From Armillaria gallica (Eukaryota; Basidiomycota; Agaricomycetes; Agaricales; Physalacriaceae), in NCBI GenBank assembly GCA_037576215.1, contig JBANDB010000009.1, forward strand, positions 1,426,001-1,490,000: a stretch of DNA of 64,000 bases. Direction: 5' to 3'. Shown here in pieces: positions 18,376 through 38,483 of the stretch (the stretch's first letter is position 1; each line of letters starts with the position of its first letter). The notes beneath the pieces were generated by a model. That model did no database searches. It saw nothing but the letters and a program-made list of their open reading frames with translations, and was not told where the DNA came from. A program made the position numbers and the translations under genes.

Positions 18376-18392
18376 ACCTTTATTGACCGTAG

Positions 18393-18511
18393 TATGCAGA
18401 GTGGCCCTGTAGTTACAGTGCAAGCCGGTATGCAGATTCTCCTGTAACTACAGGACGGTGGCGCTGACAGATGCGCTCTGCATACCCAAGAAACCCACTC
18501 TGCATACTCTG
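18393..18511 (+). repeat. Left terminal inverted repeat of the KDZ element
   Basis: About 119 bases match the reverse complement of 36890-37008. Within it are a small palindromic pair (ctgtagttacag and its mirror ctgtaactacag) and several CTCTGCATAC half-sites. Direct reading shows most positions identical with scattered substitutions. Confidence 0.85.
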
Positions 18512-19609
18512 CATACTCTTTTCAAATTAGTCAAGCGAGCGCGTTTTCTTGACAGCGGCAATGTTCGGCAGGCGCAAGGGCAGGAAGAGCTTTTTTTGCC
18601 TGGACACTGATTAGGGCTCAGGAAAGGGGCAGGGCATGGGGGCAGTCCAGGACGACATCAAAATATCGGCCATCTTGCACAAAATCAAAAAATTAGCAGT
18701 GTTTGTATGAAGAAATAGCGGTACAAAATCGGCGATTTTTTGGGAATTTTTGGTGATTTTTGTCTTTTTCCAGTGCGTCGTCGTCGTGGCCCACGACGAC
18801 AGAGCAGGCGGCCTGCGAATGGAGACGGGCCGGTTGGAGCGTCGTAGTACGCATCGGTACGGATTTTCACTTAACCGGTCAGTGGACCCGCTCACCCTGC
18901 AATTGGCGCCGAAAGGCGGCAGAGCAGATGTCTCATTCTTCATGCATCCCTCCAGCGACAGGTCAGGATTTTTCTGTTTTGAACCCTTACAATGAGCCTC
19001 AATCATGCCCCCCAAGTCATTCCGAGGCTCTTCAACGCTACAATGTGAAACCAGAGGTAGCCGGTCCTTACAAAGGCCAATCTCGACCGGTTTTTGCTGC
19101 CTCGCAAGACTTCCTCTATGCCTACAAAAAAATTTACTGCGCAGTATTAGTCATATGGATTCACTGAGTTATCAAAAAAAACCCGAAGCCAACGACTTGC
19201 TAGAACGTGCTGAAATCCAAAGTTTGCACATCGCGATCCATTTGCAGATCATTAGAATCGACATCGTACTTTTGGGGTTGACCGGCACTGTGGCACGGCT
19301 GGATTCCTCCGGAAAATTCCGTCAGTTGGAAGACATGGACTTGAATTTTCTCAGCACCCAGCAAGACTTGAATAGTAAGAGACGTCGCTGATGGTAATTT
19401 CCTTCCTGCTGCGAGTACCTTGTTCGTTCCCTTAGTGATTGTTACACAGAAAAATACATTTAAGAAGGGAATTCAATACAATAAAAAGTATCTACAGTAA
19501 TGAAAATAGGCGACGATTTAGATACCAAGAATATGTAGTAACACATATGTATATACAGACTGAGCGAGCACTGATAAATGCTTTCCAAGAATTGTCAATA
19601 TAAAAGCGC
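18512..19609. other. KDZ left subterminal region, no recognised gene
   Basis: No family is recognised. Plus-strand open frames at 18760-19167 and 19005-19391 overlap in different phases and have no motif. They may be part of an unrecognised passenger exon or chance. Confidence 0.4.
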
Positions 19610-21544
19610 CTACCTGCGGCGCTTCGCAGGCACATGCTGTTGAAGAAGAGCCTGAATGGTCCGATCTACGTCCGCGACCATCTGCAGCCACTGGGATCGC
19701 TCCTCTCCGAGCTGCCCCCACCAGAATAGACCAAACAGGATTGTAATTATCCCATTCTGTCCCCCTTTGCGAAGACATGTGAGTGGCTTAGAATAGTCGG
19801 AGATAGGAAGCCCAATGGCAGTTTGTCTCCAGGTGGGCTGTAAAGTGTTCCACCAGGCCATCATAGACTTGGCGAACCCACGAGAATCGGAAATAAGGGG
19901 GGGTATGTCAAATGAACGTGTACCGTCTGGCCAAGTCATCAGAGTTTTAGGTCATATCTTAGACGCTGGGAGTTTTCCCTGGACCTTGATGTTAGGCATA
20001 TGACAAATCTAGTATTGATATGAATGATGCACCAAATTTCGCTCGCGGCTCATATCGGTCTCGAAAGTATACCACTTCTCTAGCAGTGCCACCCACTCCT
20101 GCCCCAGCGCCGGATCCTTCATTGTTTCGAAGCTGTGAACTTGCCAACTAGGAGGGCCTTGACCGGTACTTGAGAGAGTAGTAACTTCCTTCGGGCCTGT
20201 AGGTTTGCGTGCCCGAGCCTGGTGCATCATACTACAAGTCGTGTCCGATGCTCCAACAGCTGTTGCTGAGGTACTTGTACCTATCTGAGGATTCTCGATG
20301 GTAGCAGTTGGATTGGTATTGTTCAGAAGGGCAACAACATCCACCGGAGCTGTAGCAGCATGTGGAAGAGGTGTATACGAGGCGAGAACCGGCAACGGTG
20401 TCTGAGGATTATTTGATATAGTTGGTGAATGATTGAACACAAAGTCAAGTGTTGCACTGGATGGTGACGCTGCAGAATGTGACAAGTCAGAATCGAACAA
20501 GAAGGGAGAGTCGCTGGGTGCGGATGCACTGGAAGATGATTCCCGGATGAAGTCATCTACGAAGCCAAGGGAAAACGAATCTGACAAGTTAGATGCATTT
20601 GTGTCAGGGCTACCAGACTGCGACCACAGATCCATGAAAGATGCATCTGAATAAGGGAGCAAATTTTGCTGAGCGGCCTCTGCTGGGAGTATAGAGCTAC
20701 CTGAGGCTGAAATATCGGAAAACTCCCAGTCCTGCGGCAAAAAGTTGGCAAAGCTATCGAGCCCCTCTGGCATGCTGAACATAGACAGAAACTCTGCATT
20801 TGAAAGAGGCTCAGTACACTGCTGAGCATTCGATGGCATTGTGTATGAGGTAAGCAGAGGATTTGGCAGCGGTTCCACATTTAGATGTGCCTCAGGGTTT
20901 GAACGGCTTGAAAGCGGCTCCACGATCAGCAACGGACTTGGGAGCATGGATGTAGTAGAACCGGCATTTTGGGTGGGAGCTGAGTTGGAAGTTTGTGGCT
21001 CCGAATCAACATCCATTGGGTGCAGCGCAGCATACACATCTAGCCACAAATCAGATGTCGTCAACATCAGTGACTTTTATGATAACGTATGTTCCACATT
21101 TCTCATGTGAGCTACTAACGGTGCTCCAAAGTATTCACTAGAGCCCTGCTTATCTCCTGGCATACCGCCGGGTACCATGCTTAACTCAGCGGCATCGTCG
21201 AACCAATCAAAGAATTGAGCACTGGACTCCAAGTCTGTGCCATAGTTCCAGCTGCGACAACGTCAATCTCTGCCTATACCTCGGTATAACAACAAAAATA
21301 CTTGCTACTTTTCAACTGTCCAGATTTCGGGTCTATACCTGCGCTGATTATGACGAAGCCCCAATCCGAGAGGGCGACTAGCTGGTTGAAGATATTCCCA
21401 AGCTCAGCACCTATTCCTTTCAGTACACTGCCAGCAGGTCAGTTGTCATATAAATTATTACTTCAACTGAAATGACATACAGAGCCTTCTGCTCTGGAGA
21501 CAGATGAATGTTTCCAGGTTTGACACCTTTCAGTTTTGCAATAA

Positions 21545-21552
21545 GCTCCTTC
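21545..21552. repeat. hAT target-site duplication, left copy
   Basis: GCTCCTTC, identical to 25420-25427 on the other side of the hAT element. Removing one copy and the element restores a continuous codon series in the passenger gene. Confidence 0.95.
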
Positions 21553-24500
21553 TAGTGATGCCATGACTCAGCTAGACTTGGCTCGGCTAGACTTATGCCG
21601 ACTTTGGTAATTTTGTTTAGCCGAGTCAGCTCAAGCCTGTGTCAAATTGTTGGCTAGACTAGACTCCGGCTCAAAGTCGGCTTAAGCGCAGACTAATAAT
21701 CAAAAAAGGAAATAGATGTATTAAACAATACTGTGTGATGCAAGAGACCTAATAAATGCCTGCATATCCTCGGGAACCAGTGTCTGCTGATGTAGAAGTG
21801 CCTCAAGCTCTTCTATCTGTGAGGCTTCATCCAATCCATCCGTAAAATTAAGACCCCGCCCCTTTCTGATTGAGAATTTGAGCATCTGCAAAGCTTCCAT
21901 TGCCTCTACACCTAAACGATTACACCGTAATGTGTCAGTCTCTTTCCCACTTGAAAAAACACGTTCAGAGGGTACTGCAGTGCCTTGAATAGGCAAAATA
22001 TCAAGCGCAAAAGAGAAAATAGTTGGATATCATTTCTGATTCTCCTGGCATTGATACATTAAGATAGACACAGATACGGAGATTGCATATATACCTGCCA
22101 GAACATCAAGATTGATATATCATCTCTGATCGGATCAGAAAGATATGCATCAACTTCTGCTCAAAGACTTTTTGGGGGAGCGGAAGTATGTGCACCTGGG
22201 CACATGCGAAGAATGTCATGGGCACAAGCAAGAGCGTTCCCAGAATTTGGAGCCAGTGTCCAAAGAAATGAAAGTGGCTTACTGATTGCTAAGAAATGGA
22301 CATCAACATCATCAGCATGATTTCGGTACTCTGCAAGCTTGTCAAGACCAGCATCAATGATTTTGGACAAATGCGGCAGCTCTTCTTGAAGAGCCTCCCA
22401 CGTTGATCTCATAGCCTCAAATGCGGGAAGCATATCAGAGATGCATGGGGTTTTCTCTGCTGAAAGAATTTGCTGGAATGCATGTGGAACCTGGGAAAAT
22501 ACAATGTTAGCTAGCGCATTTCTGGTGCTCAAAAAGACTGTACAGCAAGTATGTCCTGGAAATCAGAAAGTGCATTCCATTCAGCAGTACTCAGCTGATA
22601 CTGGTGTAACCCAGGAAAATCAGGGGATCTAAGAAATCTTTCAATTGCCTGTAACTGGTTATCATGTCATTCAAATCACAAAAGCATATTAAAGAATCAC
22701 AAACTGGATGTAATGTGAGAGCTCGATCAATCATCAGGAGTGTCGATGACCATCGTGTAACAACATCTCGCAAGAGCTGGAGATTGTTGGTCTCCAATGC
22801 CTCAAGTATCTCCGAAAACACTTGACAACATATGGATGAGGCTCGAATCTGAAAGGAATTCATATAAAAGAGTTGAAATTGTGAACAGATTACTTACAAC
22901 TCAGACAATTGTTCTCACGGTTGCAATAGGATCACGTTGGCATGCAGCGTTGAAATTAGTAGGTCGTCCAGGTGGTGGAATAAATTCACTGTGATCGAGA
23001 GCATGATCCAGATTTGTGATTGCTTTCAAGACAGCCTTGCAAGCAAGGTTAACAATATGTGCAAAACATCTGGAAATATGAGAACAACTGAAGACAACTA
23101 ATCACATGATAACTTACCGAATATGCCGCTTTAAAGCATCAAATGGTATACCTCGCTGTGTGAGCAATGTTTCAAGCCAAGCCAGCATCGTATCATTATT
23201 AGATGCATTGTCAAGGCTGATCCAACCAATCTGAGACAGATATTAGTTAGCACCAAGGGATCAAAGTTCTGAGCTTACCTTCAGTGCAATGTGGAGACGA
23301 TCAACTATGTGGAGAAAAGCTCTCACTAAATGCTCCCCATCATGATGACCGGGGACACAGTGAAAGCCAATCAAATCAGCGCGAAGCGTCAGAGCCAAGT
23401 ACATATCCCTGCTATTAGGTGGATGAACCTCCTTTGTATCAATCCAATGAGCTGTAACAGCCATGAATGGTACAAGATTGGCATTTGACCACAAATCAGT
23501 TGTGAATGAAATTTTACCCAGAGCGCTCTAAAGGCAGAACAGGCATCAAGACGTTAAAACACAACATATTGCAAACTATGTGACATACCTGCATCTCTCT
23601 TGAGAGCTGTTTCAAGTGCTCCTCCCATATTTCCATTACTCGGGACCAGATCTGTGTTTGGCGTGGTATGTTGGCATCAGTAAGGTCCTCTCTGAGCATG
23701 AGAAAAATCTGACGCAGCTCCGGAGACTCAATGACATTGAAAGACTAAAATATTGGTTTCAGATGCCTGTTTTGTGAATAGGAAGCCTACCTGATCATTC
23801 GCAGCAATAAACGCAACGAGTGCATCAATAAATGCTTTAAGCGAAAATGCTGGGATCCCCTCAACATTGCTTGCCATGCTGGGAGTATTCTTATGTCCTT
23901 GTCCTTGTGATTCTCGGTATGCTGCAACGACAGCTTCTGCAGCATCTGCAGTGATTTTGATCTTGAGTTTATCACATGCAGCTACCCAGAGTGAGAGATG
24001 CTTCGTATACAAGTGTCGCCGCCAGTTGCTAGTAGACGTTGATAAATGGCCAAATGATGTCGTGATCTGATGAGCCCTAGAAGTACTTTAGATTTGTATG
24101 TAGAAAAATAAGTCAGAACTTACAAGCAGAAGATACAGTGCACACAATCCTCACGCACTTGATAAAACGGTCGGAGATCAGGTATGTCTGGCATTTCCAT
24201 TGTTGCTCGCTTAGCCTGGCGGCGCTGGCGATTGCTCTTGGGTGTTGGCGCACAAGGATGCAGAATAGGTGTCAGTGTTGTAGGCCCTGATGAATCAGAC
24301 AGTGTATCAAAGTTAAATATTTCTACATCATCGGCACTTGCTAAAGAGCCATCGAGCATCGGCTGAGGCTGCAAACGACTGGCGTTATGTTCCAGAGTAG
24401 AAGCAAATGGATTCTCGTCATCGGGATCAGGAAGATCACCCTGATGTCTGTGTGAACGGGTCAATGGTGGAGTCGTTGGTACATGCGGAGAGGGCAGGGG

Positions 24501-25419
24501 AGGCTGTTGACCATGCTGAGGTGAGTAATTTGGCTGAGAGGGTTCGTTTATCCCTATGAGAAGGATATTTAATAAACGAGGCCAATTGAGAAAGGAGGAA
24601 TGACATACTAAGGTCCTGGACACGAAATCATGCATTCAAGGCTCCTCCAGGGTGTACAGCAAGCATCTCCGTTGGCCCAGGGGCTTCACTGTCAGTGACA
24701 GCTGAAGATTCAGTCTGACCACCATGTCTCTGAGCACGAGTACGCACTCCCCGACGTCCAGTTGGAGCCATTCAGGCAGTAAAAGTTAGATGATCAAAAT
24801 CAGACTGGGGAGAACAGAAAAAGTAAACAGTGTGCTAGAGAAACATAGGCCTGTTGAGAGCCATATTTATATGGTTTGCGCAATGCTGGGAAGCAAATAT
24901 AGATGTATTTCATTAAGGTGCTAAGTACGGCTGGTTTTCATAGATTAGTAGCATTTTAGACGACTGTTGGTGAACACCTAGGTCTCAATGAATACAAGAA
25001 CAGCACATATAATGTATAATGACACACCTTTATGTTGACGTTCGCTCTCGCCGCCAGTTTTCCGCCCTCAAAAGGCCTTGAGACTTGTTTCAGACATTGT
25101 GCTTGTAATTGTCCTCAGGCTTGGAAACGGAGATTAAAACTACATGTTTGTGGATGGCCAGAGGAAGCGGAAACACATAGGAGCACTACGTCTTACCGCT
25201 CGCGCCCCAAGAAGTCGGTACAAGGATGGTAGGAGCTGGTAGAGAGCAAGGATGAAGATCAATGAATCGTTACCAAATTGGTCATCGATAACCGGCTAAA
25301 GCCGACTATGGCAGCGACTTGAGTCTAGAACGAGTCTGAGCCAATTAAGGCTCAAGCTCGGCTTATCAAGGCTCAGCTTAGGGGCTCAAGCGGCTTTAAG
25401 CTTAGCCGCAGCAACACTA
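21553..25419 (-). mobile_element. Complete 3867-base hAT transposon
   Basis: The short terminal inverted repeat is TAGTGATGC at 21553 and GCAACACTA ending at 25419. The element is bounded by perfect 8-base duplications GCTCCTTC (21545-21552 and 25420-25427). Both subterminal regions are rich in GGCTAAGC/GCCGA-type words. It carries one transposase gene on the minus strand. It sits inside a coding exon of a KDZ passenger gene, and the clean duplication argues that it arrived after the KDZ element formed. Confidence 0.95.
21721..24771 (-). CDS. hAT family transposase with BED zinc finger
   Basis: A multi-exon gene reads from MAPTGRRGVRTRAQRH to HSIV. In order it shows a Pro/Ser-rich N-terminus, a BED-type finger (CVHCIFC, then WRRHLYTKH after an intron), the RNase-H-like core (FTTNLWSNANLVPFMAVTAH, GWISLDNASNNDTML, CFAHIVNLAC) and the C-terminal dimerisation block (GTAVPSERVFSSGK, RCNRLGVEAMEALQMLKF). 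This is the usual hAT order. One in-frame TGA lies near the N-terminus (24628-24630) in the frame I read from the first ATG. It could be removed by an intron I have not placed, could mean the true start is downstream, or could be a nonsense mutation. The rest looks open when spliced. Activity is uncertain. Confidence 0.85.
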
Positions 25420-25427
25420 GCTCCTTC
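25420..25427. repeat. hAT target-site duplication, right copy
   Basis: GCTCCTTC, identical to 21545-21552. Confidence 0.95.
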
Positions 25428-26584
25428 TCCTCCACGACGTCTTTTTTGATCTCGTCCTGTATTTCTGGTGTCGCGTTCTCCCACTCTTGCTGTGTGATCT
25501 CTTTGACCAATGGGAGATTATTGATGCAGACCCCTTGTCTCTTCGCCTTGTCTTTGACCTTCGGCGCAACCAACAAGTCGTAGTATCTGTTTGAAAACTT
25601 TTGGACAGCTTGGCCAGCACACTTTCGGCTGATGTCCAATTTTACCAACGTCCTCTGCGATTCGACCTGGTGAGGTTTGTGGTTTTGATACCAGCGTCCG
25701 AGTTGCTGTCAATTCATTATTAGGATATCTGGTAACCGAAAAAATAGAATGCTTACCCTCTTCTTCCTCTTCAATTTCTTATCCAGCCTTCTCCTCTCTT
25801 TCTTGGTTACACATACCTTCTTGCATCCAGCCAAACAAAGCTGCGGACCAAGATCCAGTACACTGTCAACCATCTTGGGATATTTTGCTCCAGGAGGGGA
25901 GTTGAACACCCCAATCAACTCAGGTGGTGCCAACCTGGCATTCCCGACTGGATCGAAAAACTTGTTATGATACAAGACCATCCACCATCGCATAAAGTCC
26001 TTTCTCACCCTGGTGAAAAACACTGTCATCACTCCATTTGATGACGAATCCACATATTCGCCTATGCTGGCCTCTAGAAATGACTGCTGGTCAGGATTGG
26101 TCCACCGCTTGTTACTCTTTTCATCGTCAGACGATGAATCCGAAGAGTCCTCATCATCTTCATCCGAGATATCACCTTTGTCTCCTAGTTCTTCATCTGA
26201 ATCACCTCCAAACGCCTCGCCTGAAAGGCCTGTGAACATGTCACCTGAAGTACCTGCGAACACATCGCCTGAAGGCCCTCCAAACACGTTGCCTGAGAAG
26301 AATCCCGCCGCAGCCAGCCTAGACAGAAAATCGGTCATGTCTGATGAGGACGCTGCACTACTGAATGGCAGAGGAGCGATGGCTTGAGCTGACATCTTGA
26401 CAGATGTGAACGGAGGTACTGGAAGCATCGAAGTGGATATACTCGACATTCCATTGGCTGGTAGGCCTTCAGAGACTGCATGCAATGGTGCACGGGAAGC
26501 AACCTGTCCTGATTTTGCATTCCCAGGTATTTTTGATTGAGGGCGAGCATTGCTTTTGGCTTTTGGCTTTGCTGAAGTCCCCAT

Positions 26585-26924
26585 CTGAAACTCCTCTATA
26601 TTAGCAGCATTCCCAACGCGTTAGAACGATGTGAAAGCTTACGGTGAGGCCAATATTACCTGAAAAGTTTCCGCTTGACCACCTAAGAATAGTTTTTTGG
26701 TCTGACAAGGGAGAAAAGCGAAAATGCGGTTTTGATGGCCTTTTTCAGCTGGCACCTGATCTGTCATTCTTGACTGCACTGTACAGAGTTGGATTTACTG
26801 GAGTATGCATACTCCCCTGTTGATATAAATGCCTTGATGCTCTCCATTCCACATCATCCCATTCTCACTCACTATCAACCAGCACTCTCAATTTCAGTTC
26901 TCAGTTCTCAGTTCTGCATTCAAA
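26585..26924. promoter_or_regulatory. Bidirectional promoter with 14-base palindrome and TATA-like box
   Basis: This region separates the starts of the minus-strand passenger gene (26584) and the plus-strand RNase H1-N gene (26925). It holds GAGTATGCATACTC at 26801-26814, a perfect palindrome whose core GTATGCATAC recurs five more times in the KDZ element. TATAAA follows at 26824-26829, about 95 bases before the plus-strand ATG. Roles are inferred from position only. Confidence 0.55.
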
Positions 26925-27670
26925 ATGACACACTTCACCCAAGACCAGTTCGTCACAGCCCTTGCAGCCCTCAGTATTTCACTGCCGCATGCGGAAGGTA
27001 TGTTTGTCGAACTTCTTAAACCAACATATTCTAACCTTACTGTTCAGCGCCAGTTCATCCTGATGCGCACAGTAATAATTTGGCAGAAGCTGCTGCTGGG
27101 GCACTACACAGTTTCTTTTGTTACAACTGCTCCCACCCAAACGTCATTCCAGTGTCAGCTATCCCCACCATGACAGCGGTTCCTCTTGCACGCTCAAGGA
27201 ACCCTGCCCTGCCGGTGTCTGCTGCTGCCACGAGGGATTCGTCTTCTCCTGCACAGGCCCCGACCGCTCACTGCCCTATCATTGCACCCGTTGCACAGTG
27301 CATGCCAGTAGCCTCGTCTTCAGCCATTCCTTCTGGCCCCCTCCCTCAAAATCCCGCCGATGTCCAGCCAGTTGGTGTTGCCGCAGGTACTCCCTCTGTT
27401 GGGCCTGCCCCCTTCTCTACTTCCCCGACTGTCGGACCAGATGGTCCTTGGTATGTTGTTTCGAAAGGCCGCTCTGTTGGCGTCTTCAAGGGGTGGTAAG
27501 TACTCTTTACTCTAATCTGAACGCATGCTTATTTTTCCCTATCTAGGCAAAATGTAAGCAATCTTGTGATGGGGGTGGGGCGCACATGCTTTTTTCATCA
27601 TCCAAGCCGTGCATCGGCTCTCGCCGCGTTTAATGAGGCTCTCACCAACGGTTCTGTGGAGATTCTCTGA
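26925..27670 (+). CDS. KDZ passenger protein with RNase H1 N-terminal (viroplasmin-like) domain
   Basis: Three exons (26925-26997, 27048-27495, 27547-27670) give 214 residues; both introns are short GT..AG introns that keep frame. The N-terminus opens MTHFTQDQFVTALAALS. The middle is Ala/Pro/Ser-rich and probably disordered, with a CYNC pair. The C-terminal about 55 residues start PWYVVSKGRSVGVFKGW and continue with VMGVGRTCFFHHPSRASALAAF, the pattern of the small domain shared by RNase H1 N-termini and caulimovirus viroplasmin (WYxVxxGRxxGIYxxW, then F..F....A...F). That domain binds RNA:DNA hybrids or dsRNA in RNase H1; here no catalytic RNase H follows. It lies inside the KDZ element, divergent from the large passenger gene, so it is probably element cargo. 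Role unknown. Confidence 0.8.
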
Positions 27671-28748
27671 ATGGCCCTGAAAAACACACTTTCTTGGTAT
27701 TTCTTGGACACTTTCTTGGACCCTTTCAGTTGTAGTCTCCGTGCTAATTTTCATTGGTAGTTGCGGCTATAAGTTTTATGCATGTAGTTGAATCGCGCTC
27801 CTTACAAACATCCACTCCTTAGCTGTGTCTTTTTTTTAAGTTATTTTTCGCAGTACATATTCATTACTCTTTACTGTTACCCTTCCCTCCCCTTCTTGCC
27901 ATACTCCTCCCAAGGCTTAGTCGCTCAATATACTGTTTGTCACCCTGAATTACATGTCATGAGAACCACAGAATGTATCAGCCTAAGAATAATGCGCAAC
28001 AACTTGAATCAAGTACTCCTCCCCAATGTATCCAACGAGTTTGCTATTTGCACCACGAACAAGCACGACAGACCAGCTCATATGGACCGAGACATCAGAT
28101 GTCCCCACCTTTCCGTTACCACACTGTAGTCATCTATCAATGTTCAAAGAAGAGAATCTAAATCATGACTCATTTCCCAGCGTCGATGGGTAGGGAAACA
28201 AGGGGTCAAAGTCGCTGATAATATCATCTATATTATTTTCTTCTGAATAATGATGAGCGCATATTGATGATAGATTGAGAAGGCGACTACTACTTAGTTT
28301 TGACAATGATGTCAGATCCAAATATAGCTGATCATGATCACTTTTGCCTCTCTATTACGAATACGAGTATGCATACCCTGACAGTCACTGGCTGCTCCAC
28401 TCCCAACCTCTGACTGTAATCCAAGAAATTGACGTTGAATGTTTTGCAGGGAGCAGGTCAATGGCCACGCATATTCAAGCATCGGATCGTACATTTAGGC
28501 AGAATAAGATAGCATACTCTTGTTGCCAGCCCATCCTTCTAACCTATGGCCTATGTACCCTGGCCATCATGTAGCAGTACCAACCCTTGCTAAATGCGAA
28601 TTCGACCTCGCCTTGTCACCGCTCTTTATCATCACTGAAGCTACCTCTGCTCTCCAGTGTAAAATGCACTCCATGGTACTATTTTTGACAGGAAAGAAGT
28701 TGCCTTCAGTGGAATTAGTCTCCTTGCTATGTCTGGAGGTTGATGAAG
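27671..28748. other. KDZ internal spacer, no recognised gene
   Basis: No coherent gene found. One GTATGCATAC palindrome lies at 28367-28376. Open frames on both strands are short and in conflicting phases. The 28567-28842 minus frame overlaps the end of the neighbouring broken gene in the wrong phase. Confidence 0.45.
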
Positions 28749-29222
28749 TCAATGTTGAGCGGTTAAGTTCCCGGCCAATTTTTGCAATTCTTCCTCCACG
28801 TGCATCCATCCATCCATCCTTCGAGGACCTGGAAGTATTCATTAGTCACTACTAAAGATAGAGCTTACGAGCACGTATGACTCGCAAAGACTGCACACTA
28901 TCTAAATAGCGAATAAACCCTATGAAATGTCGGTCCATCACGGAACTGGGGTATTCAGCGACAAAGATGCGCAGGAATCCTCGCCACCAGACCTCCAAAT
29001 AGCCATGGTATATTGCATTGAGGTACCCCTCATGATATCAAGCAAGAAATCTCTCCTTTGTGATATCCAGGGTGAATTTGCCGTCGAGGGTGCGAATTAT
29101 CCTTGAGTGATCCTGCATTGATCTAGGGTATGACAGTATGTGAGACGTAGTCGTAAAAAGATGTTAAAGGGTTCATACATGATTTGAGACCTAAAGAGAG
29201 GAGAGAGGTGTGATGCTGTCAT
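28749..29222 (-). pseudogene. Small KDZ passenger gene with an internal TGA
   Basis: It starts MTASHLSPLFRSQ at 29222. After a GT..AG intron it continues MQDHSRIIRTLDGKFTLDIT, then EGYLNAIYHGYLEVWWRGF and VMDRHFIGFIRYLDSVQSL, and a last exon ending VEEELQKLAGNLTAQH. An in-frame TGA at 29038-29040 interrupts an otherwise clearly protein-like sequence (FLA then TGA then YHEGYL). The phase across the last intron did not fit cleanly, which may indicate another indel. I do not recognise the family. The composition, with many aromatic and acidic residues, resembles the small gene at 35855-36479. Confidence 0.55.
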
Positions 29223-29522
29223 CTCAGAGTCGTGGAGATGGGAGGAAAATGTTAAGAGGATCTGTGTGGGAATCTGAATCAGAAGGAGTGGGCATTTATA
29301 TAGACATCGTATAACAGAATTTATTCAGTCTTAAATATATGGTGACTGCTATGACTGACATGCAATTGCAATTTCGACTCATTTGAAAGAGATTCCAGCT
29401 GTTAGTGTATATTCCAGACACATTTATTTCGATACGATGAGACTGTCATATGAAAAGATGAAAATGGTATAAGCTGCACCAATTGATCACGGTCACAACT
29501 TGGACCATCTTCTCTCACTCTC
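29223..29522. promoter_or_regulatory. Divergent intergenic region of two passenger genes
   Basis: This separates the starts at 29222 (minus) and 29523 (plus). A TATA-like tttatatag lies near 29296. No copy of the GTATGCATAC palindrome was found here, unlike the other divergent pairs. Confidence 0.35.
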
Positions 29523-30391
29523 ATGGCACCACCGAAAAAATATCTTACTTTGGAAGCCAAGCAACAGTTGCTCTGTGACAACAGCAAATGTTATTATGAG
29601 AGGTACGCTATCTCGAAACCCAAGCATATTTCATTTATCATTGTACGAAGGCATAAGCACAAAATTCATTGCCACAGGGCTGCCTACTATGATGCTCAAC
29701 ATGCCGGGAAGAAATCTAGGTACGCACTAGTTGATATGTATAAGTTTTAACTTGCTCTCACCATTGCACATCACTAACAGGCGCTCTGAATCTCATCCTG
29801 ATGCAAGGAAACAGACTCATGCCAAGAGAGTCGGCAAGACCAATGCACTTGAAATCCAGACCATAAGGTACTGACGTTCCTTTCAGTATCTAATCTTCTA
29901 CATTATACTGATGTTAACTAAAAAGCAGAGCAACTGTACATTATCTGAAATCCACGAGGGTCAAGCTAGCGTCTCCTCCTCCACCTCCCCCTCCTCCGCC
30001 TGTTGATGTGTTTCCCAAACTCAGCGACGAGGCCAAGGTTCTTCGGGATGACTTTGACTATTTCATTGGAGGCGTGTCGCTCACAAGCTTCATAAAGCAC
30101 CTCTTGAAAAAATATTTCAGATCGGACTCCAAGCGCCAAGGACAAATCGCCATATTTGTAGAACCTCTAGATGAATTGTACCAATTTCAGAAGAGCTACG
30201 GATGCATCGTTGCGCAATCCCTGAGGATCGAAGGACCAAGTACTAGACATCTTGGACTAGAGCAAGAGGGTCAATCGATTGGAAGAGCCATCGAATGGGT
30301 AGAGGATATCTGGCATTGTGCGATTGATGGACCAGGCAACTTAAGACTTGCATACAACAGGCAACTGATGGCGTGGCAAAGGAGGGTATAA
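29523..30391 (+). CDS. KDZ passenger protein, basic N-terminus, unknown function
   Basis: Four exons (29523-29602, 29678-29719, 29781-29867, 29929-30391) keep frame through three introns and give 223 residues. The N-terminus MAPPKKYLTLEAKQQL followed by CYYERAAYYDAQHAGKKS is basic and resembles the leader of the gene at 30611-31170 and of many Agaricomycete hypothetical proteins that start with a K/R-rich helix. A run of nine prolines near residue 80 separates it from an alpha-helical, mixed-charge C-terminal half (DDFDYFIGGVSLTSFIKHLL, AIEWVEDIWHCAID). I recognise no domain. It sits inside the KDZ element between other passengers. DNA binding by the basic leader is only a guess. Confidence 0.65.
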
Positions 30392-30610
30392 TTAAATATT
30401 GTCGCTACAAAACGCAAGCTCCTGGCTGTCATACTTAACCTGCAAACTATTGAGGCCAATCATTGCCTCGCATAAAATAACCTCTAGCCAGTATATCAGC
30501 TGCTCAATGGGTGCCAAAACAGTTTGAACGTAAGCCATCTCTTTTCTGACTCCCGTTAAATTCAAGACCACATGCTCGTATTCCTGTGCTGAGTTTTCAA
30601 GTGAAGAAAG

Positions 30611-31170
30611 TCAAGTAATAGCATTGTTGATGAGACTCCGAAACCCACGGGGATGTCTTGAATTAATGGTACTGAGATATTCATGATATATGCTCTCAGC
30701 AAAGCATTGCAGACTGTTTTCAGTTAGTAGGCTGAATCTCCATCCTAGATGCTCAAGTTGGTCCAATGTTGCAGCCAACTCAGAGCTACGCCTACAAACA
30801 ATGTTCAAACCGGCTAGCCTGACAGTATATTGACACGTACTGTGTATGGGTTTCTCCGGCATTGACCTCAATATCGATATTATGTGCTGCCCGTTGAACC
30901 AAGGGCTCGAGACATCTGGATCCGTGTTCAGGACCATGAAACAAAGAGGTGTCATGCCACTTACCCTTTTGACTTTTTTTTGGCCTTTTTAGCAATAGCC
31001 TGGTAGGTGTTGCACCGACGTTTGTTGATGTTAAGCCGATGTCTGAGAATCTTGATTAGCAAATCATACTCTGGAGCCGTTTTGACTGACATTTGATAAC
31101 TTTGACAACTGCTGGCATTGTGAGCAGCTCTACGCTCCTCTTCACTTTTGGGTGTGTGTTGTGAAACCAT
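30611..31170 (-). CDS. KDZ passenger protein, basic N-terminus, unknown function
   Basis: Three exons (31170-30965, 30915-30841, 30791-30611) join in frame to 153 residues. The N-terminus reads MVSQHTPKSEEERRAAHNAS, then a basic stretch HRLNINKRRCNTY and KKAKKKSKG, followed by LVQRAAHNIDIEV and a helical C-terminus with LAATLDQLEHLGWRF and HEYLSTINSRHPRGF. The leader is similar in style to the 29523 gene. It is convergent with that gene and divergent from the 31548 gene, sharing with the latter a promoter region that contains three palindromes. No family is recognised. Stop and start are clear, but the first intron is only about 50 bases. Confidence 0.6.
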
Positions 31171-31547
31171 AGCAATGACTGAAAAGAAAGGATACTGTCA
31201 AACTGAACAATGGACGACGTATGTCAAGGGCACGTGAGAGACGCTCTGCATACTCCAGCAAGGGAATAAGAACGGTGATTACGAGCCGTCAGTATGCATA
31301 CTGCATTGCAGTATGCAGAGTGGACTGTCTTGGTATGCATACCGTCGAAATGAGGATTATGCAGACCGAGTGCTCTTGAAGTATACATACTCGCAGTGGA
31401 TTGGTATGCATACCAATGTCGAAACGAGGATCTCTGAAAAGTATAAGACTAGGATGATCACAATAAACCACTTACCAAAATGTCTATTGGCATGCGGTGC
31501 ATTACTTTCGTGTTTTGTGATTCCTACTGACAAGCGATGACCTTAGC
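31171..31547. promoter_or_regulatory. Bidirectional promoter with three palindromes and a TIR-like block
   Basis: GTATGCATAC occurs at 31292-31301, 31333-31342 and 31404-31413. AGTATGCAGAGTGG at 31310-31323 is identical to bases 18391-18404 of the element's left terminus. CTCTGCATAC, the inverted half-site, is at about 31244-31253. The region thus carries transposon-end sequence between the divergent starts at 31170 and 31548. It may be a regulatory site, a transposase binding site, or the end of an older element now captured inside. Confidence 0.6.
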
Positions 31548-31996
31548 GTGACCATGAAGCAGCGGGTATTTCTCAAGCCATACCTCGATATGTATCGTAG
31601 GGCAAAAGCCGAAGTGAGTCATAATCCTGGTGTCTTTGCCAGATTTCAGTCCTGCATATGGGAGCTGTGGCAGGCTCGCTGGCGACCAGAAATAAAACCT
31701 TTAGTGGATTCAGAGGAGAAGGATGTTCGAGCATGGCATAGACATCGCCAAAAGGTAAGCTTGCATGTCATACTGCATATTACTAGTTCGCTGAGGTTTC
31801 ATTCAAGGATCTTCTATTGATTGTTCATGCATACACAATGTGGGATTGCTTCTACATCAGATCGAAGGGAGTCGGAGTGAAAAAGAAGAAAACAGTTATG
31901 TACAGCAGATCCAAGGATACTGACAAATCCATTGGTGCACGGCGCAGTAGTAGAGTACCCAAGCCAACCAAACACACGGATGCTAGTAGTGAATAA
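31548..31996 (+). CDS. Small KDZ passenger protein, unknown function
   Basis: Two exons (31548-31754 and 31808-31996) give 131 residues. It reads MTMKQRVFLKPYLDMYRRAK, then FARFQSCIWELWQARWRP, then after the intron DLLLIVHAYTMWDCFYIRSK and a basic tail (KKKKTVMYSRSKD, RRSSRVPKPTKH). Exon joining is phase 0 and clean. The aromatic WELWQARW block and basic tail are the only visible marks, and I recognise no domain. It lies directly upstream of the KDZ transposase on the same strand and could be its N-terminal partner gene. Confidence 0.6.
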
Positions 31997-32191
31997 CCTT
32001 GTTGCCATCTGTTTTCCAATAGCTTCTAAACAGGCTTCTTTGAGACCGTCAAGCACGAGAGTTAGACAAGAAGTTTGTTCTGGTCGTCTCCGTGTTTCTA
32101 GTTCTCAGAGAAGTATCATGCTCTTATTATACAAGCTACTATACTGAGCATTCTGCATAGTCCTGACAGGTGCTGGCGCTCTTAAAGAACG

Positions 32192-35100
32192 ATGTTACAA
32201 AGGCAAAGCCTCAACACTACATTTTCTGTCCAACAATGCTTAACTACCGTCCTAAGAAGCATGGACAGGCATGTCCAGCCAGGGAATTCAGAGTCGAAGA
32301 CAAGGATGATGAACAGCCCCCCCCTGCCACAGCTGGACCATTATCAGCACACTCAATTTAGTTTGAAGGGGACCAGCACTCGATCAAGTGCACACACTAC
32401 GACACTTTCGCTCCCTTCACTAGGACTACACCATCCTTCAACAGCCATAGAGCCTTCTCGCTTTGCGCCGGAACTGCTCCCATCATCTTTTTTGGATCCA
32501 GACTATGCACCATCTGCTGAACTGCCAGGCAGGGATGAGGAACATTCCAGTACTCGTGCTCCTAGGCCACTGGGCGTAAGTTGAAATCCCATGCTAATCT
32601 AATTGTCCTGATCTTCTCTGTTAGGATCATCCACTCCTTGTGTGGTGCAGTCAACGCTCAGTTTTTCTCGACGAAATGCTTAAACTCGATGCATTTGAAG
32701 ATGACGGTGACAACGGAATATGTGACGCATGTACGATTAGTCCAGGAATATATCGCTGTCTTTCCTGCATGGATGCACGACACCTGTGCCAGACTTGTAT
32801 TGTGGACGAACATGCATGCTCACCCTTACACAGGATAGAAGTAAGCTTCGCTTTATAAACATGAGCATAATTCACCGATACTTGGATAGGAGTGGCGAGC
32901 ATCATTTTTCTGCAAAACCACTCTCGCAAAGCTTGGTCTCAGCTTCCATTTGGGCCATAAACTTGGAATGCCGTGCCCATCTCCTGTCATTAATACTAAA
33001 TTTGTTGTTATTGATGTGGACGGCATCCATACCGTCAATATAGCCTTTTGTGATTGTACCCAAGGTATTGAACGACACATACAGCTGCTTCAACGAAGGC
33101 TGTTTCCTGCTACTACAATTTACCTGCAGACTGCCATCACATTTCGAGTTCTTCACCTATTTCAATTGCTTTCGTTTATGTCAAAGGTATCGGCATACAA
33201 ATTTTATCATACTCTGGCTTGGGTAACCGATAACTCCGGGATGTATACGCCTCCAGTGAAGTTTTTTCTGATGTGTTAATATAACATTCCTGATTGGTTT
33301 CAGGATCGCTATCAGACGTTTCTTTGTGTTGTAAGAGAGTGGCGCCATATTCGTGCTCTGAAACGATTTGGATGTGGGCATGAACCTGGAGGAATTGAGG
33401 GTACTCGCCCAGGTGAACTCGCCCTTCATTGTCCGGCCTGCCCTCAACCTTGCATAAATTTACCCCCAAATTGGAGGGACGATATGTATGTTGCCTTATA
33501 TATGACATGTCTCATATTTACAGTTTTCTTCCTTTAGATCTAGGCGCTGGTTATATCGGTTGTTCCTTGGTATCGATGCCAATTTTCAACTCTGTTGATT
33601 GAACGTCTCCAGTAACAATGCTGACCCTGGCCTGAACGAGGGCTATGCATACTTTGTCGAAGAATGCGCTTTCCAGACACATCTCAACGCTTTTGGCAAG
33701 ATCATACCTGAGGAGGAGAAGAGCACCTGCAATAATCATGACGCCGTCAAACTTGCGAACAGCAGAGGAGGTCAAGGTGCAGCAGCAATGGGTGTGGGTG
33801 CCGTTGTCTGCGCGTGGCACGATATGAAGCGCCCTTTGTCAGTTGGAGACCTCCAAAAGGGTGAAAGGTGTGGAATGCATATTCTGTTTCTAATTTGATG
33901 CTCATCGCTGGTGATATAGATACCTTAATATGGATTATTTCATGTTATCAACACTTACATGCGACTCACCTCCGGATTTGGTAGTCTTGTATGACATTGC
34001 ATGTCAATGGCATAAGAACTTCTTTAGTCGGATTTCTAAGTATCCCGAGCATCTCTGACCGGAGCAATTAGAGCGGAATATTCTCTATCTAGTACCAAAG
34101 TTCCACCTTCCTGCCCATATCCTCCAATGTTGCGACAATTTCTCTTTCAACTTCTCATCCAAGGTTGGCCATACCGATGGCAAAGCTCCAGAACATGGTT
34201 GGGCTGCCACTAATGTGTTAGCAAGCAGTACAAAGGAGATGGGCCCTGGTTCTCGCAGAGACACTCTTGACGACCATTTTGGAGATTATAACTGGCGAAA
34301 AATCATCATTTTGTGTACGTCATTCCTTGTGGAACATACAAAAGTGGCTAATGCTTGGTCTCAAGCTGATACCCTCTGTGATCGACTGAAGGTGGCATGG
34401 TCAGCTTGTCTAGAGCACATCATAGAGTTCATCAGCTACGAGGAAGCCCTAAAGGCCGATCACTCAGCATCAGTTGAGTTGTGGAGACAAATGGTTCTTA
34501 AATGGGAGCAAGACCGAACCCAGACAAATCCCTTCTCGCCGAGATTGCATTGTATGTAGCAGTTGTATCCCTTAACAAAAAAGATGTCTTTCTTATGTGC
34601 TGTAACTTGTAGCTGTAACAGAAACTGCAGTCTGCCTCGAGCTTGCCAAAGAAGAGAAATCTGTATCACTTGTCGAAATCCGTCATGATGTAAGTCCAAG
34701 CGAGTTCATTGCACAGGGACTTCAGCTGGAGGAGGCTCAGTGAGTGTCTTGTTGTGGTTCGTTACTAAACGTTATTGATCAAATGGATAGGGTTCGACTG
34801 CAGGATGATATGAACGCACTTGGTTCTCACGCAACAGATTTGCAGCGCTCAAAAGTTCAAACACAGGCAAATCACATTGGGCGGAAAATCGAGGCCTGGA
34901 TAGATGTCCAGAAGGTATACATGCCTAGGACCACCCTTCTCCGGGTCAGGGATGATGACCGTTGTCCAGCTGGTACCGAAGTGCACCCATCAAAAATCCC
35001 GCTGTATCTCCCTTCAGCAGCATTGAAACTCAATGCTGTTGATCCAACAACCCAAATCACAGTCATTGACGACGAACGACGTCTACGACTTGCTCAAGCC

Positions 35101-35835
35101 AATGACACATTGGCCTCACTACATGACCATCTCCTGCTCAGATCGTACCTGACAGTCTGGCGTCAGCGCTTTAATCGGGGTCAGTGTTATGGAACGAAAG
35201 CAAACACGTTGCTTCACCGAGTGGAGACCAAGATTGCAGCAGATGTAGCCTGGTACCAGCGTATATATGCGGCCTTGGATACCGTCTCGACCAAATCAAA
35301 CCGATTTGAATGGCAGGGTGTCCTTCTCCCTCTCAAGGATGGGGATGTTCATGGATTAGATCAGTACAATGAATCAATATCAGAAGGGCATCGCAATCTG
35401 TCATGGATCTGGAAGACAAATCTACAAGGTGGTGACGAGGGACTGCAGGAGGGTAAGCAGATTGTAGTTTTCTTCTTACAAAATTTGACTATCTATCCCC
35501 TTATAGCATTGCAGATCGAGTGGTGTAAGTCTTGTGCATGAGCCCAACACTGGCAAGAAGAATGCGAGTTGCTGACAGAAGAGATGCACCATGTCCAGGT
35601 CACTTTCACATGTTATGCACAATTGTGGACCACCCAGGCGACATTGAAGGATCTCCCCGGTACAAAAGCTTATGCTTTCAGGCAAGCTGCACTATGGAAC
35701 AATCTATACGAGAAAGCTGAAGCTAAGTGGCTTGAGCTGCAGGCATCCTTCACTTTGACTTCGACGGAGATAGCCATCTCTATTACTGACCTAGATAATC
35801 GTACTACAGACGCGGTATTTTTTAATGAAGTTTAG
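32192..35835 (+). pseudogene. CxC2-type KDZ transposase, three internal TGA codons
   Basis: A Ser/Pro-rich first exon is followed by DHPLLVWCSQRSVFLDEMLK and the cysteine cluster (ICDACTISPGIYRCLSC, CQTCIVDEHAC, PLHRIE, AFCDC) typical of the CxC2 domain. Then come FMSKVSAYKFYHTL, REWRHIRALKRFGCGH and LHCPACPQPCINLPPNW. The KDZ catalytic part shows FLGIDANF, LYDIACQWHKNF and APEHGWAATNV with MGPGSR and LDDHFGDYNW; by family knowledge the D, D and E in the three blocks form the active site. Introns are short and keep frame. In-frame TGA codons occur at 33596-33598, 34056-34058 and 35539-35541, each where I recall the family having arginine, suggesting CGA to TGA decay. The exact start is uncertain. 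Confidence 0.85.
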
Positions 35836-35854
35836 GGACAGTAATCATGTATTA

Positions 35855-36479
35855 TCAAAGCTCCATTTCAAACTGAGTGTCAAACTGAGTCGGTCGTACA
35901 ATGACCCATGGATGCCCAAAGACATGGCAAATCTTTTGGAACTCACAGCAAATAATGTCCTCCAAATCATCCAAAATCTCCAGGACCTTCCGATCTTCCA
36001 ACCCATCTGGCGCTTGCTTGAGAAAGTACCACCTATGTTTAAGCCCCATAATATAAAGTGTAAAAATTTCCTATTCAATCGAAGTTTAAGTCAGAAGAGA
36101 AGAACGGATGGTAGGACAGGACATATGATTTTACGTTGCTCTGTATCCGCTAGGCACTCTTCGTCGATGTACATCGCGAATTCATCTTCAGGCCAGGAAG
36201 AGAACCATGAATCATACAATTTCTCAAAGAAAGGCAACACTCTGTGCTCCAAAACAGCTTCTTCAAATGCAGGACCGAATTCTGCAAGCCAGAGTTGTTG
36301 CTCTAGAGAGTACCATAGTCGGACAGCATAGTCGTGCTTGACCGGACCTGTGAAAACACTGATAATTGTTCTGTAAGAGCGTCAGCACTAGTCAGAATCT
36401 GTGTGAAAATATCTTACCAAGAACCATCCCCAATTCTGTTATATTGATGATAATGGAACAAGTCCATATCGAAGGACAT
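35855..36479 (-). pseudogene. Small KDZ passenger gene, probably damaged
   Basis: The minus strand reads MSFDMDLFHYHQYNRIGDGS at 36479. After a consensus intron (gtaagat to ttacag) it continues TIISVFTGPVKHDYAVRLWY and SLEQQLWLAEFGPAFEEAVL, and farther on YDSWFSSWPEDEFAMYIDEE. A last exon reads GLKHRWYFLKQAPDGLEDRK and ends FDTQFEMEL. The protein-like quality is strong, but joining exon 1 to exon 2 creates a TGA and the last splice does not keep phase, so I infer damage or unusual splicing. No family is recognised. It is the rightmost passenger, reading toward the transposase end. Confidence 0.5.
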
Positions 36480-36889
36480 GGTGTCAAAGCAGGGAGCGAT
36501 AACACATAACCAGGAGAGGAGCACTTGATATAGAGGTTTCCCAGTGCATATGAGTATGCATCCTGTAGGAATGACGTTTTCTACAGCGATTGGGCACGCA
36601 TGGGTATGCATACTCTAGTTTACTGCGCTATGCAGGGCATATTTGCATGACATAACGGCCTTAGATGGTCATACTGTTGAACTCCATTTGCAGGACGCAT
36701 CATTCAAGATAGGTGATGAGAGTGAATATCGTCGGGAGATCGAGAGAGTAAAATAAGAATATTGCGAGTATTCAGGTAGTTCAGCAATTCCTGGTTATTG
36801 GCCGATTCGGCATAGTATTTTGGGTGGGGGTGTGGGCGGGGAGGGGAGAATATTGTGATGTAACTAGGATGTGGGAAAATGACAGGACC
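36480..36889. other. KDZ right subterminal region
   Basis: No gene seen. One GTATGCATAC palindrome lies at 36604-36613, about 125 bases upstream of the small gene's ATG. Confidence 0.5.
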
Positions 36890-37008
36890 CTGAGTATGCA
36901 GAGTGAGTTTCTTAGGTATGCAGAGCGAATCTGCCAACGCCACCATCCTGCAGTTACAGGAAACTCTGCATACTGGGCTGCACTGTAACTACAGGGCAAC
37001 TCTGCATA
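36890..37008 (-). repeat. Right terminal inverted repeat of the KDZ element
   Basis: Reverse complement of 18393-18511 with scattered mismatches, ending ACTCTGCATA at 37008. Confidence 0.85.
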
Positions 37009-37018
37009 ATATGGACGG

Positions 37019-38483
37019 TATAGCCTCGCCTCCAAGCCAACGAATATGAGCAGAACCACAGAATGAAGAGCCAAGGACTCGACAAGGACTTCGATAACAT
37101 GGCTATAATCTCCAAGCCTGCTATTCACTGCATCATTTACCCGTATAATGGTTACAATGCGGAGAACGATAAGAACGGTGCACCATGTAGTCGTAGCAAA
37201 GATGCAGAATATGTAGATTACTGTAGTATTACGACTGCATGTTCATATAACGCATAACGCGGCACCCTGAACCGAACTTAAGTCATATCATGTAACACGT
37301 AATGCAGGGTCATGAACATGTATCTAGGCAAACAATGTTTACTCATTTTTTGGTGTGATTTTCAGCTATTTTCTCGACTTAATTTAGGCCTATTCTTTGT
37401 CCAAAATACAATCCTCCGTGGGCTGAAGAAACATTTTGGACCAATGCATGACTCTGACAACTGGGACAATTCTGTCTGGCATTCCATGAACATGAACCTA
37501 TGCCATAATCTATAATGCATAACACCGAGTCCTGAACATGAGTCCCGGTGAACCTAACTCATAACGCATAACACCCGGTGAACATCCGGTCGTAATACTA
37601 CAGTACCAGTATGAGCTGGTCTCCCTTCCCGTAGAGGAACACTTCGGAAATATCCCTAATTTTAAGAGCTGTACAAATTTGCTGCCTGTCAATGAATATA
37701 TGAAAGTAGGGTTATTAGACATCTCACCAACTCTGCCAATAAGGCAAAGGACAGGAACACAACTATGGACCAACGCCATCCCCACACCATCCAGCAATGC
37801 CAAATCTACCCGGAGTTTGCATAACACTAAGTTGACATCAATATTCACTGCTGGAGTTGCACATACTATGGTGGAGTCGGCAATGGCAGTACTCATAACC
37901 GCAGTCATACCAATCCCGAGGTTGGATATCCCATTCAAGCGATTCATAGAAGGATCAAGTTCCAAACCGTCGACAATGGTTGTTTCGACAGAAAGAATAA
38001 GTGCCGAATTTAAGAAGACGTTAATGGACGTCATAACGTAGAGGAGGATGATAACGGCCACCATGGCTCGGCCAATGGATCGGGATTTGCTGATAACTGT
38101 GTGGGAGAAATTGGGTATATCAAAAACACAGCGAGAATATTCCACCCACATATATTCCATAGCGTGACAGAAATGATGCCAGTATATATGCCTAAGATGC
38201 GCAGCCACGATTAGTGGAACCAACCATCAACAATTTTGAACACGCACGTACTGTGCAATAGAGCAAGTTCAATGGTTGCATTCAATTTATCATCGTGGTA
38301 ATGGTATTCATACTGAACGTTAACTGTCACCGTGTAGGGGAGAATATCTATCCCAGACTTTAAGGACATCTGAACAAAGGTATGGGTGGCAAGCAGTAAA
38401 TTGGTTATGAAACCGTACACACATACTCCTATTATATAGAACGGATTCCCCATCAAAAGTTCATCGAAGATTGAAACAAGCAT
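37019..38483 (-). pseudogene. Membrane protein copy B, N-terminal piece
   Basis: This continues the gene split by the KDZ element. It reads MLVSIFDELLMGNPFYIIG at 38483, then THTFVQMSLKSG, a third exon with SRSIGRAMVAVIILLYVMTS, and the WGRHW-type block near 37780. It ends inside the exon with HSVVLLIFVGLEA near 37030, next to the KDZ right end. A further MITE (37221-37603) interrupts it. Its matching C-terminal piece is at 18037-18375. Confidence 0.75.
37221..37603. mobile_element. TA-flanked MITE inside membrane gene copy B
   Basis: The inverted ends are CTGTAGTATTACGAC at 37221 and GTCGTAATACTACAG ending at 37603, each bordered by TA. The interior contains repeated tataacgcataac words near both ends. 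Copy D around 47185 shows the uninterrupted sequence, so this is an insertion of about 383 bases with a TA duplication, as in Tc1/mariner-related MITEs. There is no coding sequence. Confidence 0.75.

What the first reader, a model, noticed from the sequence alone, without database searches (positions are those of the whole stretch)
18393..37008. An 18.6 kb KDZ transposon carrying at least six non-transposase genes
Inverted ends of about 119 bases bracket a CxC2/KDZ transposase and a set of other genes or gene remnants: a large acidic/WTxxxQ gene, an RNase H1-N domain gene, two genes with basic leaders, a small gene just before the transposase, and two small aromatic/acidic genes. The host membrane-protein gene continues on both sides, so the block moved as a unit. 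KDZ elements with passengers are known in basidiomycetes (TET/JBP cargo has been described), but I see no TET/JBP here. A cargo set including a viroplasmin-like domain seems worth describing as a possible cargo module.
Basis: partly seen in the sequence, partly recalled or inferred. Interest (0 to 1): 0.9.

Follow-up and report, generated by a model that had tools for sequence, protein, structure and literature searches.

The report
KDZ transposon with conserved gene module
A large jumping gene of a honey-mushroom-type fungus carries several extra genes that recur beside related jumping genes in the same order at up to 18 places in the same genome, so they look like working parts of the jumping gene rather than accidental passengers.

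Summary
The block is one KDZ DNA transposon; its true ends are 18374-37027, 19 bases further out on each side, with a perfect 7-bp target-site duplication. It sits in a host gene whose Armillaria gallica counterpart reads straight across the site. (1) A hAT transposon (21553-25419) and a ~320-bp repeat are nested inside. (2) This copy is decayed: the transposase, B' and C' contain stops and gene A is split by the hAT. (3) The 'passengers' are not loose cargo. Genes A, B, C, C', D and E recur beside related KDZ transposases at 17 further loci of this genome, in the same order and orientation (A, C, C', D in 18 of 18; B and E in 17 of 18). dN/dS below 1 suggests purifying selection. Relatives of A and E occur in other Armillaria/Desarmillaria. 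Only B has a recognised domain, the RNase H1 N-terminal hybrid-binding domain, without catalytic RNase H. C and C' look paralogous; A and E perhaps. A has a weak homeodomain-like match. No TET/JBP gene was found. Best reading: a multi-gene KDZ lineage whose accessory proteins assist or protect transposition. Structure well supported; protein roles inferred.

The parts
18367..18373 (.). left copy of the 7-bp target-site duplication GCCTCCA
   Evidence: repeated at 37028-37034
18374..18509 (+). left end, beginning 5'-CAACCTTTATTG; inverted repeat with the right end starts about 19 bases in
   Evidence: 94-97% identical at three other loci
18928..19250 (.). nested ~320-bp dispersed repeat, not part of the module
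   Evidence: 33 further matches listed at 76-87% (40 of 88 candidates scored)
19613..26620 (-). gene A: large acidic protein with a WTxxxQ...FL segment and a W[FY]xN (homeodomain-helix-3-like) segment; interrupted by the hAT; outer limits approximate
   Evidence: ORFs; 17 further hits, each in a KDZ module; frame resumes across the hAT empty site
21545..25427 (-). nested hAT transposon 21553-25419 with 8-bp duplication GCTCCTTC on both sides
   Evidence: Dimer_Tnp_hAT 28 bits over cut-off 21.4; duplication; 90-95% copy on C5
26925..27672 (+). gene B: exons 26925-26997, 27048-27495, 27547-27669 (my model), 214 aa, CxxC motif and RNase H1 N-terminal (hybrid-binding) domain, no catalytic RNase H
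   Evidence: Cauli_VI 24.7 bits, cut-off 21; hits in 17 of 18 modules
28777..29103 (-). gene B' remnant: small aromatic/acidic protein, one internal stop
   Evidence: 41% over 65 aa in the C10 element, also in C7, not seen in C3; no genome-wide search made
29523..30391 (+). gene C: basic leader MAPPKKY..., then a conserved part of about 130 aa
   Evidence: 18 of 18 modules
30395..31214 (-). gene C': likely paralogue of C, tail to tail with it, one internal stop in this copy
   Evidence: 18 of 18 modules
31521..31993 (+). gene D: small gene before the transposase (a separate gene by my reading of the ORFs)
   Evidence: 18 of 18 hits lie in the 18 modules
32236..35817 (+). KDZ transposase with CxC2 cysteine cluster; one TGA inside the KDZ domain; limits approximate
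35897..36479 (-). gene E: small aromatic/acidic protein MSFDMDLFHYHQYNRIGDGS...
   Evidence: 17 of 18 modules by profile
36892..37027 (+). right end, ...GGTATAGCCTC-3'
   Evidence: same terminal TATAGCCTC at 8 of 8 module elements examined, different flanks
37028..37034 (.). right copy of the target-site duplication GCCTCCA

Best explanation
This is a decayed copy of a large multi-gene KDZ DNA transposon. A KDZ transposase with a CxC2 cluster binds the long subterminal inverted repeats, cuts the element out and inserts it with a 7-bp staggered cut (cut and paste inferred from superfamily and duplication). Six accessory genes (A, B, C, C', D, E; probably B' too) are fixed parts of this KDZ lineage. 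Most likely they make nucleic-acid-binding proteins that help assemble the transposition complex, choose the target or protect the element from silencing. Shown: element borders, duplication, empty site in an orthologue, conserved gene order in 18 copies, two copies nearly identical at different sites, dN/dS below 1. Inferred: every function of the accessory proteins.
For: Borders and 7/7 duplication. A. gallica protein aligns across the insertion point, 85% identity. 18 loci share order and orientation: A 18/18, C 18/18, C' 18/18, D 18/18, B 17/18, E 17/18. All 18 A hits and all 18 D hits lie in these modules; a random point lies within 30 kb of one of the 123 KDZ hits used with chance at most 8.6%. 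The elements on C7 and C10 are 97-98% identical over the about 10 kb held of both, up to the same last base, with different flanks. Median dN/dS in usable pairs: A 0.41, C 0.21, C' 0.42, D 0.37, E 0.15, against 0.12 and 0.22 for two transposase pieces.
Against: No accessory protein except B has a recognised domain. B' was seen in two of three other elements read, not searched genome-wide; its one close pair (C7/C10) has dN 0.041 above dS 0.024. AlphaFold models were poor (A pLDDT 31, E 55) and E gave no fold match at E<=0.001. dN/dS rests on few pairs for C (3), C' (2), D (2) and the transposase pieces (2 each); the D pair C7/C10 has dN 0.030 and dS 0. Loci sharing this copy's exact ends lack the module. 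No transposition was observed.
Confidence: 0.82

Rival explanations
1. Passive cargo: the element captured unrelated host genes that simply ride along and decay.
For: This copy's accessory genes B' and C' carry stops and A is interrupted; most have no known domain.
Against: Same genes, order and strand at 18 loci of diverged elements; dN/dS below 1 in the usable pairs; among scored candidates A, B and D hits occur only in these modules.
Confidence: 0.07
2. Nested insertions or misassembly: independent repeats piled up between two KDZ ends.
For: A hAT and a 320-bp repeat really are nested.
Against: After setting those aside, the remaining order matches 17 other loci; 7/7 duplication at the outer ends; host orthologue intact across the site.
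Confidence: 0.03
3. Anti-silencing module: the accessory proteins do not act in transposition but block host silencing, the role proposed for TET/JBP in other KDZ elements.
For: No TET/JBP match over cut-off anywhere in the genome; B has a hybrid-binding domain whose Pfam name, Cauli_VI, also stands for a caulimovirus protein (meaning of the name recalled).
Against: No direct evidence of any kind; so many genes would be unusual for one task.
Confidence: 0.3
4. Transposition helpers: A (homeodomain-like), B and the C/C' pair bind element DNA or R-loops and shape the transposition complex.
For: All 5 PDB matches of the A profile at E<=1 are homeodomains in the same register (best 0.037); the diverged window copy independently gives homeobox PRH as second of five matches at E<=10 (E 0.67).
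Against: E-values are weak and the five are related to each other; Pfam finds no homeodomain in 7 of 7 relatives; helix 1 not recognised; model of A unusable.
Confidence: 0.35

Closest known systems
Kyakuja (KDZ superfamily), e.g. Kyakuja-1_LB / -2_LB (PMC12730594; sections 3.1, 3.2, introduction, legends and one find seen)
   Same: KDZ transposase; 7-bp duplication; 5'-CA start
   Different: 3' end is ...CTC, not TG; about 120-bp subterminal inverted repeats instead of none; no TET/JBP; a module of conserved extra genes
Cryptococcus KDZ1-KDZ3 (PMC12810828, passages seen)
   Same: KDZ plus CxC transposase, long inverted repeats (139-241 bp), about 9-11 kb
   Different: there CxC1 and 8-bp or 4-8-bp duplications; no accessory genes mentioned in the passages seen
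Pleurotus KDZ transposons (PMC7641404, passages seen)
   Same: intact ones preceded by a CxC2 cluster
   Different: no accessory module mentioned in the passages seen
Zisupton / Dileera (PMC12730594)
   Same: same superfamily
   Different: 8-bp duplications
Starship elements (listings and passages only; definition partly recalled)
   Same: large fungal element with many genes
   Different: no tyrosine recombinase found; small fixed gene set instead of variable cargo
MuDR/Vandal elements with an anti-silencing protein (mentioned in the introduction of PMC12730594)
   Same: transposon coding for an extra protein beside the transposase
   Different: unrelated transposase; the paper names one regulatory protein, not a module

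Membership tests
KDZ superfamily | KDZ transposase domain (PF18758) over curated cut-off | tested here: met
   117 bits against 26.6
KDZ superfamily | CxC cysteine cluster before the transposase core | tested here: met
   CxC2 127 bits against 27
Kyakuja | 7-bp target-site duplication | tested here: met
   7/7 here and at C2:84470-87763; 6/7 on C7 and at C5:531906-538199; 5/7 on C20
Kyakuja | 5'-CA...TG-3' termini without terminal inverted repeats | tested here: not met
   CA at the left, CTC at the right; inverted repeats begin about 19 bases in
Kyakuja | transposase falls in the Kyakuja branch of the KDZ tree | not tested
   no named reference transposases were fetched
Zisupton / Dileera | 8-bp duplication | tested here: not met
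   the neighbouring base differs on either side at the two perfect 7-bp sites
TET+ KDZ elements | TET/JBP gene inside the element | tested here: not met
   none in six-frame Pfam scans (exon-split domains can be missed); genome search: none over cut-off, 3 weak hits, none near a module
Starship | tyrosine-recombinase captain | tested here: not met
   six-frame Pfam scans at E<=0.1 show only CxC1/CxC2, KDZ and hAT; the scan missed B's exon-split domain, so it is not exhaustive
hAT (nested element) | hAT dimerisation domain and 8-bp duplication | tested here: met

The most novel reading that the evidence does not exclude
A multi-protein transposition machine: a eukaryotic DNA transposon that, beside its transposase, encodes a conserved set of nucleic-acid-binding proteins built largely by duplication of two helical families (C/C' and A/E, perhaps with D and B'), with a homeodomain-like DNA binder (A) and an RNA:DNA-hybrid binder (B), so that target choice or escape from silencing may be guided by R-loops.
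Probability: 0.15. Interest if true: 0.85.

Novelty: new variant of a known kind. Interest (0 to 1): 0.62.

Why it matters
KDZ elements are abundant in mushrooms and, in the papers seen here, are described by transposase alone or by transposase plus TET/JBP. A lineage with six or seven conserved accessory genes gives defined, testable proteins for how large eukaryotic DNA transposons move or escape silencing without TET/JBP. It also means that some gene families of unknown function annotated in Armillaria are transposon genes, which would distort gene counts. One survey lists A. ostoyae as an outlier with 31.6% candidate host-TE derived proteins (PMC10799480, passage seen); that this module contributes to it is my inference.

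Tried and rejected
Tried without result: six-frame Pfam scans gave only CxC1/CxC2, KDZ and hAT. Pfam for A, C, C', D, E gave nothing over cut-off (A family, 7 relatives). AlphaFold of A was unusable (pLDDT 31). E reached 55 and its fold search had no match at E<=0.001. PDB profile search with E gave four weak, unconnected matches (E 0.73-0.88). The homeodomain link of A is kept as a lead only. Shared origin of A, B', D, E: against 40 column shuffles each, A-E (29.0, shuffle maximum 21.1), A-D (18.6, max 17.6) and D-B' (18.7, max 16.9) exceed all shuffles, but A-B' is reached by 1 of 40, E-D by 8, E-B' by 17. Pairs meant as unrelated scored up to 17.1 (E against C) in the same call, hhalign probabilities among A, B', D, E were all below 2%, and A-E scored only 14.0 with the setting. 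So only A/E is called possible to probable and A-D and D-B' stay open. C/C' is better supported (29.6; maximum 15.5 in 60 shuffles; reversed controls about 11.6), though its hhalign probability is only 42-46%. Left ends were found at 3 of 8 module elements looked at (window, C7, C20): the pieces fetched by guess for C2, C1 and C5 missed them, none was recognised in the C3 stretch, and that of C10 lies outside what was fetched.

Literature: searches gave no listing or passage describing these accessory genes (one search found no paper at all). The founding KDZ paper (Iyer et al. 2014) is not held, so prior mention there cannot be excluded. Supplements were not read.
Full report
Setting. The window lies in an 86-Mb genome held as 28 contigs (C9:1426001-1490000). 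The nearest proteins for E, the host gene and A, wherever a source names them in the rows listed, come from Armillaria, Desarmillaria and (host gene) Guyanagaster (one search lists 120 of 199). The organism is therefore an Armillaria or a close relative.

Borders. At exactly these ends stands a perfect 7-bp direct repeat, GCCTCCA. A 3.3-kb derivative at C2:84470-87763 has CTGAGTG on both sides (7/7); one at C5:531906-538199 has GTCTAAC/GTCCAAC (6/7). The host gene is a membrane-protein gene on the minus strand. Joined flanks keep its frame open across the junction, and A. gallica protein ARMGADRAFT_1073823 aligns through the junction at 85% identity with no insertion there (the 22-residue gap in that alignment lies elsewhere, where I left out an exon). 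This is an empty site in an orthologue.

Inside. Six-frame Pfam scans show CxC2, KDZ and a hAT dimerisation domain. The hAT spans 21553-25419 with an 8-bp duplication and splits gene A; the frame of A resumes across its empty site. A 320-bp repeat at 18928-19250 has 33 further matches listed. Without these two the element is about 14.5 kb. This copy is decayed: stops lie in the KDZ domain, in B' and in C'.

Recurrence. DNA of the transposase region finds seven related transposases at 67-69% identity over 2-3.2 kb, and shorter matches at further loci; upstream DNA matches beside several of them. Protein searches of the whole genome were made for A (18 hits), C' (31 rows), E (27), C (34 rows), D (18) and B (22 rows) and for KDZ (169 matches, 150 rows listed). 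These searches score only the best candidates. Anchored on the transposase, 18 loci including the window have, in order, A (opposite strand), B (same), C (same), C' (opposite), D (same), the transposase, E (opposite). A, C, C' and D: 18 of 18; B: 17 of 18 (not C11); E: 17 of 18 (the C3:7274 locus falls below the threshold, but E is visible there). Strand is constant in every case. Spacing is mostly constant: A at -7.9 to -10.6 kb in 14 of 18, B at -7.1 to -9.6 in 14 of 17, C at -4.0 to -4.3 in 14 of 18, C' at -3.5 to -3.8 in 15 of 18, D at -2.3 to -2.8 in 15 of 18, E at +2.0 to +2.2 in 13 of 17, with three at +15.4/+15.5 and one at +5.3 (one search used start points instead of midpoints). On C10 an insertion of about 11 kb inside C explains the shift; the other shifts were not explained. 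A, B and D hits occur only in these modules. C and E have further hits: 30 of 31 C rows and 27 of 27 E rows lie within 30 kb of a KDZ hit, the extra ones in other arrangements, so C and E seem to accompany other KDZ lineages too. C' is looser: 19 of 29 rows.

Movement as a unit. The element at C7:1910967-1928657 (17.7 kb) begins CAACCC, ends TATAGCCTC and is flanked by TTGTCCA/TTGTCCG. It is 97-98% identical to the C10 element over the about 10 kb held of both, up to the same last base, while the flanks differ. The last bases TATAGCCTC are the same at 8 of 8 elements examined (window, C10, C7, C3, C2, C1, C20, C5), with eight different flanks. The left end of C20 equals that of C7 over the 90 bases compared, with a 5/7 duplication. 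Left ends of the other five were not found or not fetched.

Result against a simple reading. The 15 other loci that match this copy's own left end gave no match to A, B', C, D, E or two transposase pieces in the 20 stretches fetched (queries from C7; B was not among them, but no B hit lies there). Only C' occurs, in two of them. They are therefore non-autonomous relatives or fragments. The module recurs in related elements with diverged ends, and the nearest other transposase in this genome is only 69% identical in DNA. An A. ostoyae protein is 95% identical to the window's E (P0006, 134 of 141 residues), so the window's own subfamily seems to exist there.

Selection. Median dN/dS (NG86) over usable pairs (0.05<dS<2): A 0.41 (27 of 105 pairs), C 0.21 (3 of 6), C' 0.42 (2 of 6), D 0.37 (2 of 6), E 0.15 (16 of 55), transposase pieces 0.12 and 0.22 (2 of 6 each); B' none usable of 3. 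Close pairs C7/C10 carry too few changes to judge and some go the other way (B' dN 0.041, dS 0.024; D dN 0.030, dS 0; transposase piece 0.89). Comparisons with the window copy were mostly saturated. Taken together, values below 1 fit function at the level of the element, with little data for C, C' and D.

The proteins. B is a 214-aa protein with three exons in my model, a CxxC motif and an RNase H1 N-terminal domain (24.7 bits, cut-off 21). It ends about a dozen residues after this domain. The only PDB match at E<=10 is the N-terminal domain of a ribonuclease HI (1qhk, E 0.074). That such domains bind RNA:DNA hybrids is recalled knowledge. C and C' are alike: profile score 29.6 against a maximum of 15.5 in 60 column shuffles, 110 columns, 20% identity. 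A and E score 29.0 against a maximum of 21.1 in 40 shuffles, but hhalign probabilities among A, B', D and E are below 2% and an unrelated pair reached 17.1, so a common origin is possible to probable for A and E and open for D and B'. The A family has a W[FY]xN segment: in 8 of 9 database relatives and in C3 it reads VKQWFPNN. Its profile matches homeodomain helices 2 and 3 without gaps (5 of 5 PDB matches at E<=1, best E 0.037). The diverged window copy gives homeobox PRH in the same register at E 0.67, second of five. Pfam finds no homeodomain and the AlphaFold model of A has pLDDT 31, so this is a lead.

Other species. This suggests that the module is older than one species; gene order there was not read.

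What is known. Kyakuja elements of Laccaria make 7-bp duplications and have CA...TG ends without inverted repeats (PMC12730594; sections 3.1, 3.2, introduction, legends and one find). Cryptococcus KDZ elements are about 9-11 kb with 139-241-bp inverted repeats (PMC12810828, passages). Pleurotus KDZ transposons are preceded by CxC2 (PMC7641404, passages). Passages of PMC8290104, PMC7473861, PMC13066641 and PMC10799480 were also seen. I saw no description of this gene module in those texts or in the listings; Iyer et al. 2014 could not be read.

Verdict. A real, ordinary-in-kind KDZ transposon with an unusual content: a conserved module of accessory genes. New variant of a known kind.

Noticed in passing
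21553-25419: nested hAT transposon with perfect 8-bp duplication GCTCCTTC, a 90-95% copy at C5:161473-165798, four further relatives at 71-72% and one shorter match at 67%
   Followed up: yes
18928-19250: about 320-bp repeat with 33 further matches listed at 76-87%; no clear inverted ends seen
   Followed up: partly
L014, L015, L016, L018, L020 (C20, C6, and C2 three times): five copies of the right-end sequence have nearly the same outer flank, so they are part of a larger repeat unit; two of them lie at the same distance (3110) from the start of contigs C6 and C20, perhaps a shared subtelomere
   Followed up: no
L021:3877-4254 (C2) and L027:2736-3113 (C5): C' copies beside a related left end but without transposase in the DNA held; on both contigs a second C' hit lies about 13 kb away, suggesting a duplicated segment
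   Followed up: partly
C15:1978218, C17:1572983, C5:3674292: three modules share the same shifted E position (+15.4 to +15.5 kb), as if an element that already held a 13-kb insertion had spread
   Followed up: no
C6:353126, C1:6301914, C2:4747036: three sub-threshold Tet_JBP matches (24-28 bits), none near a module
   Followed up: no
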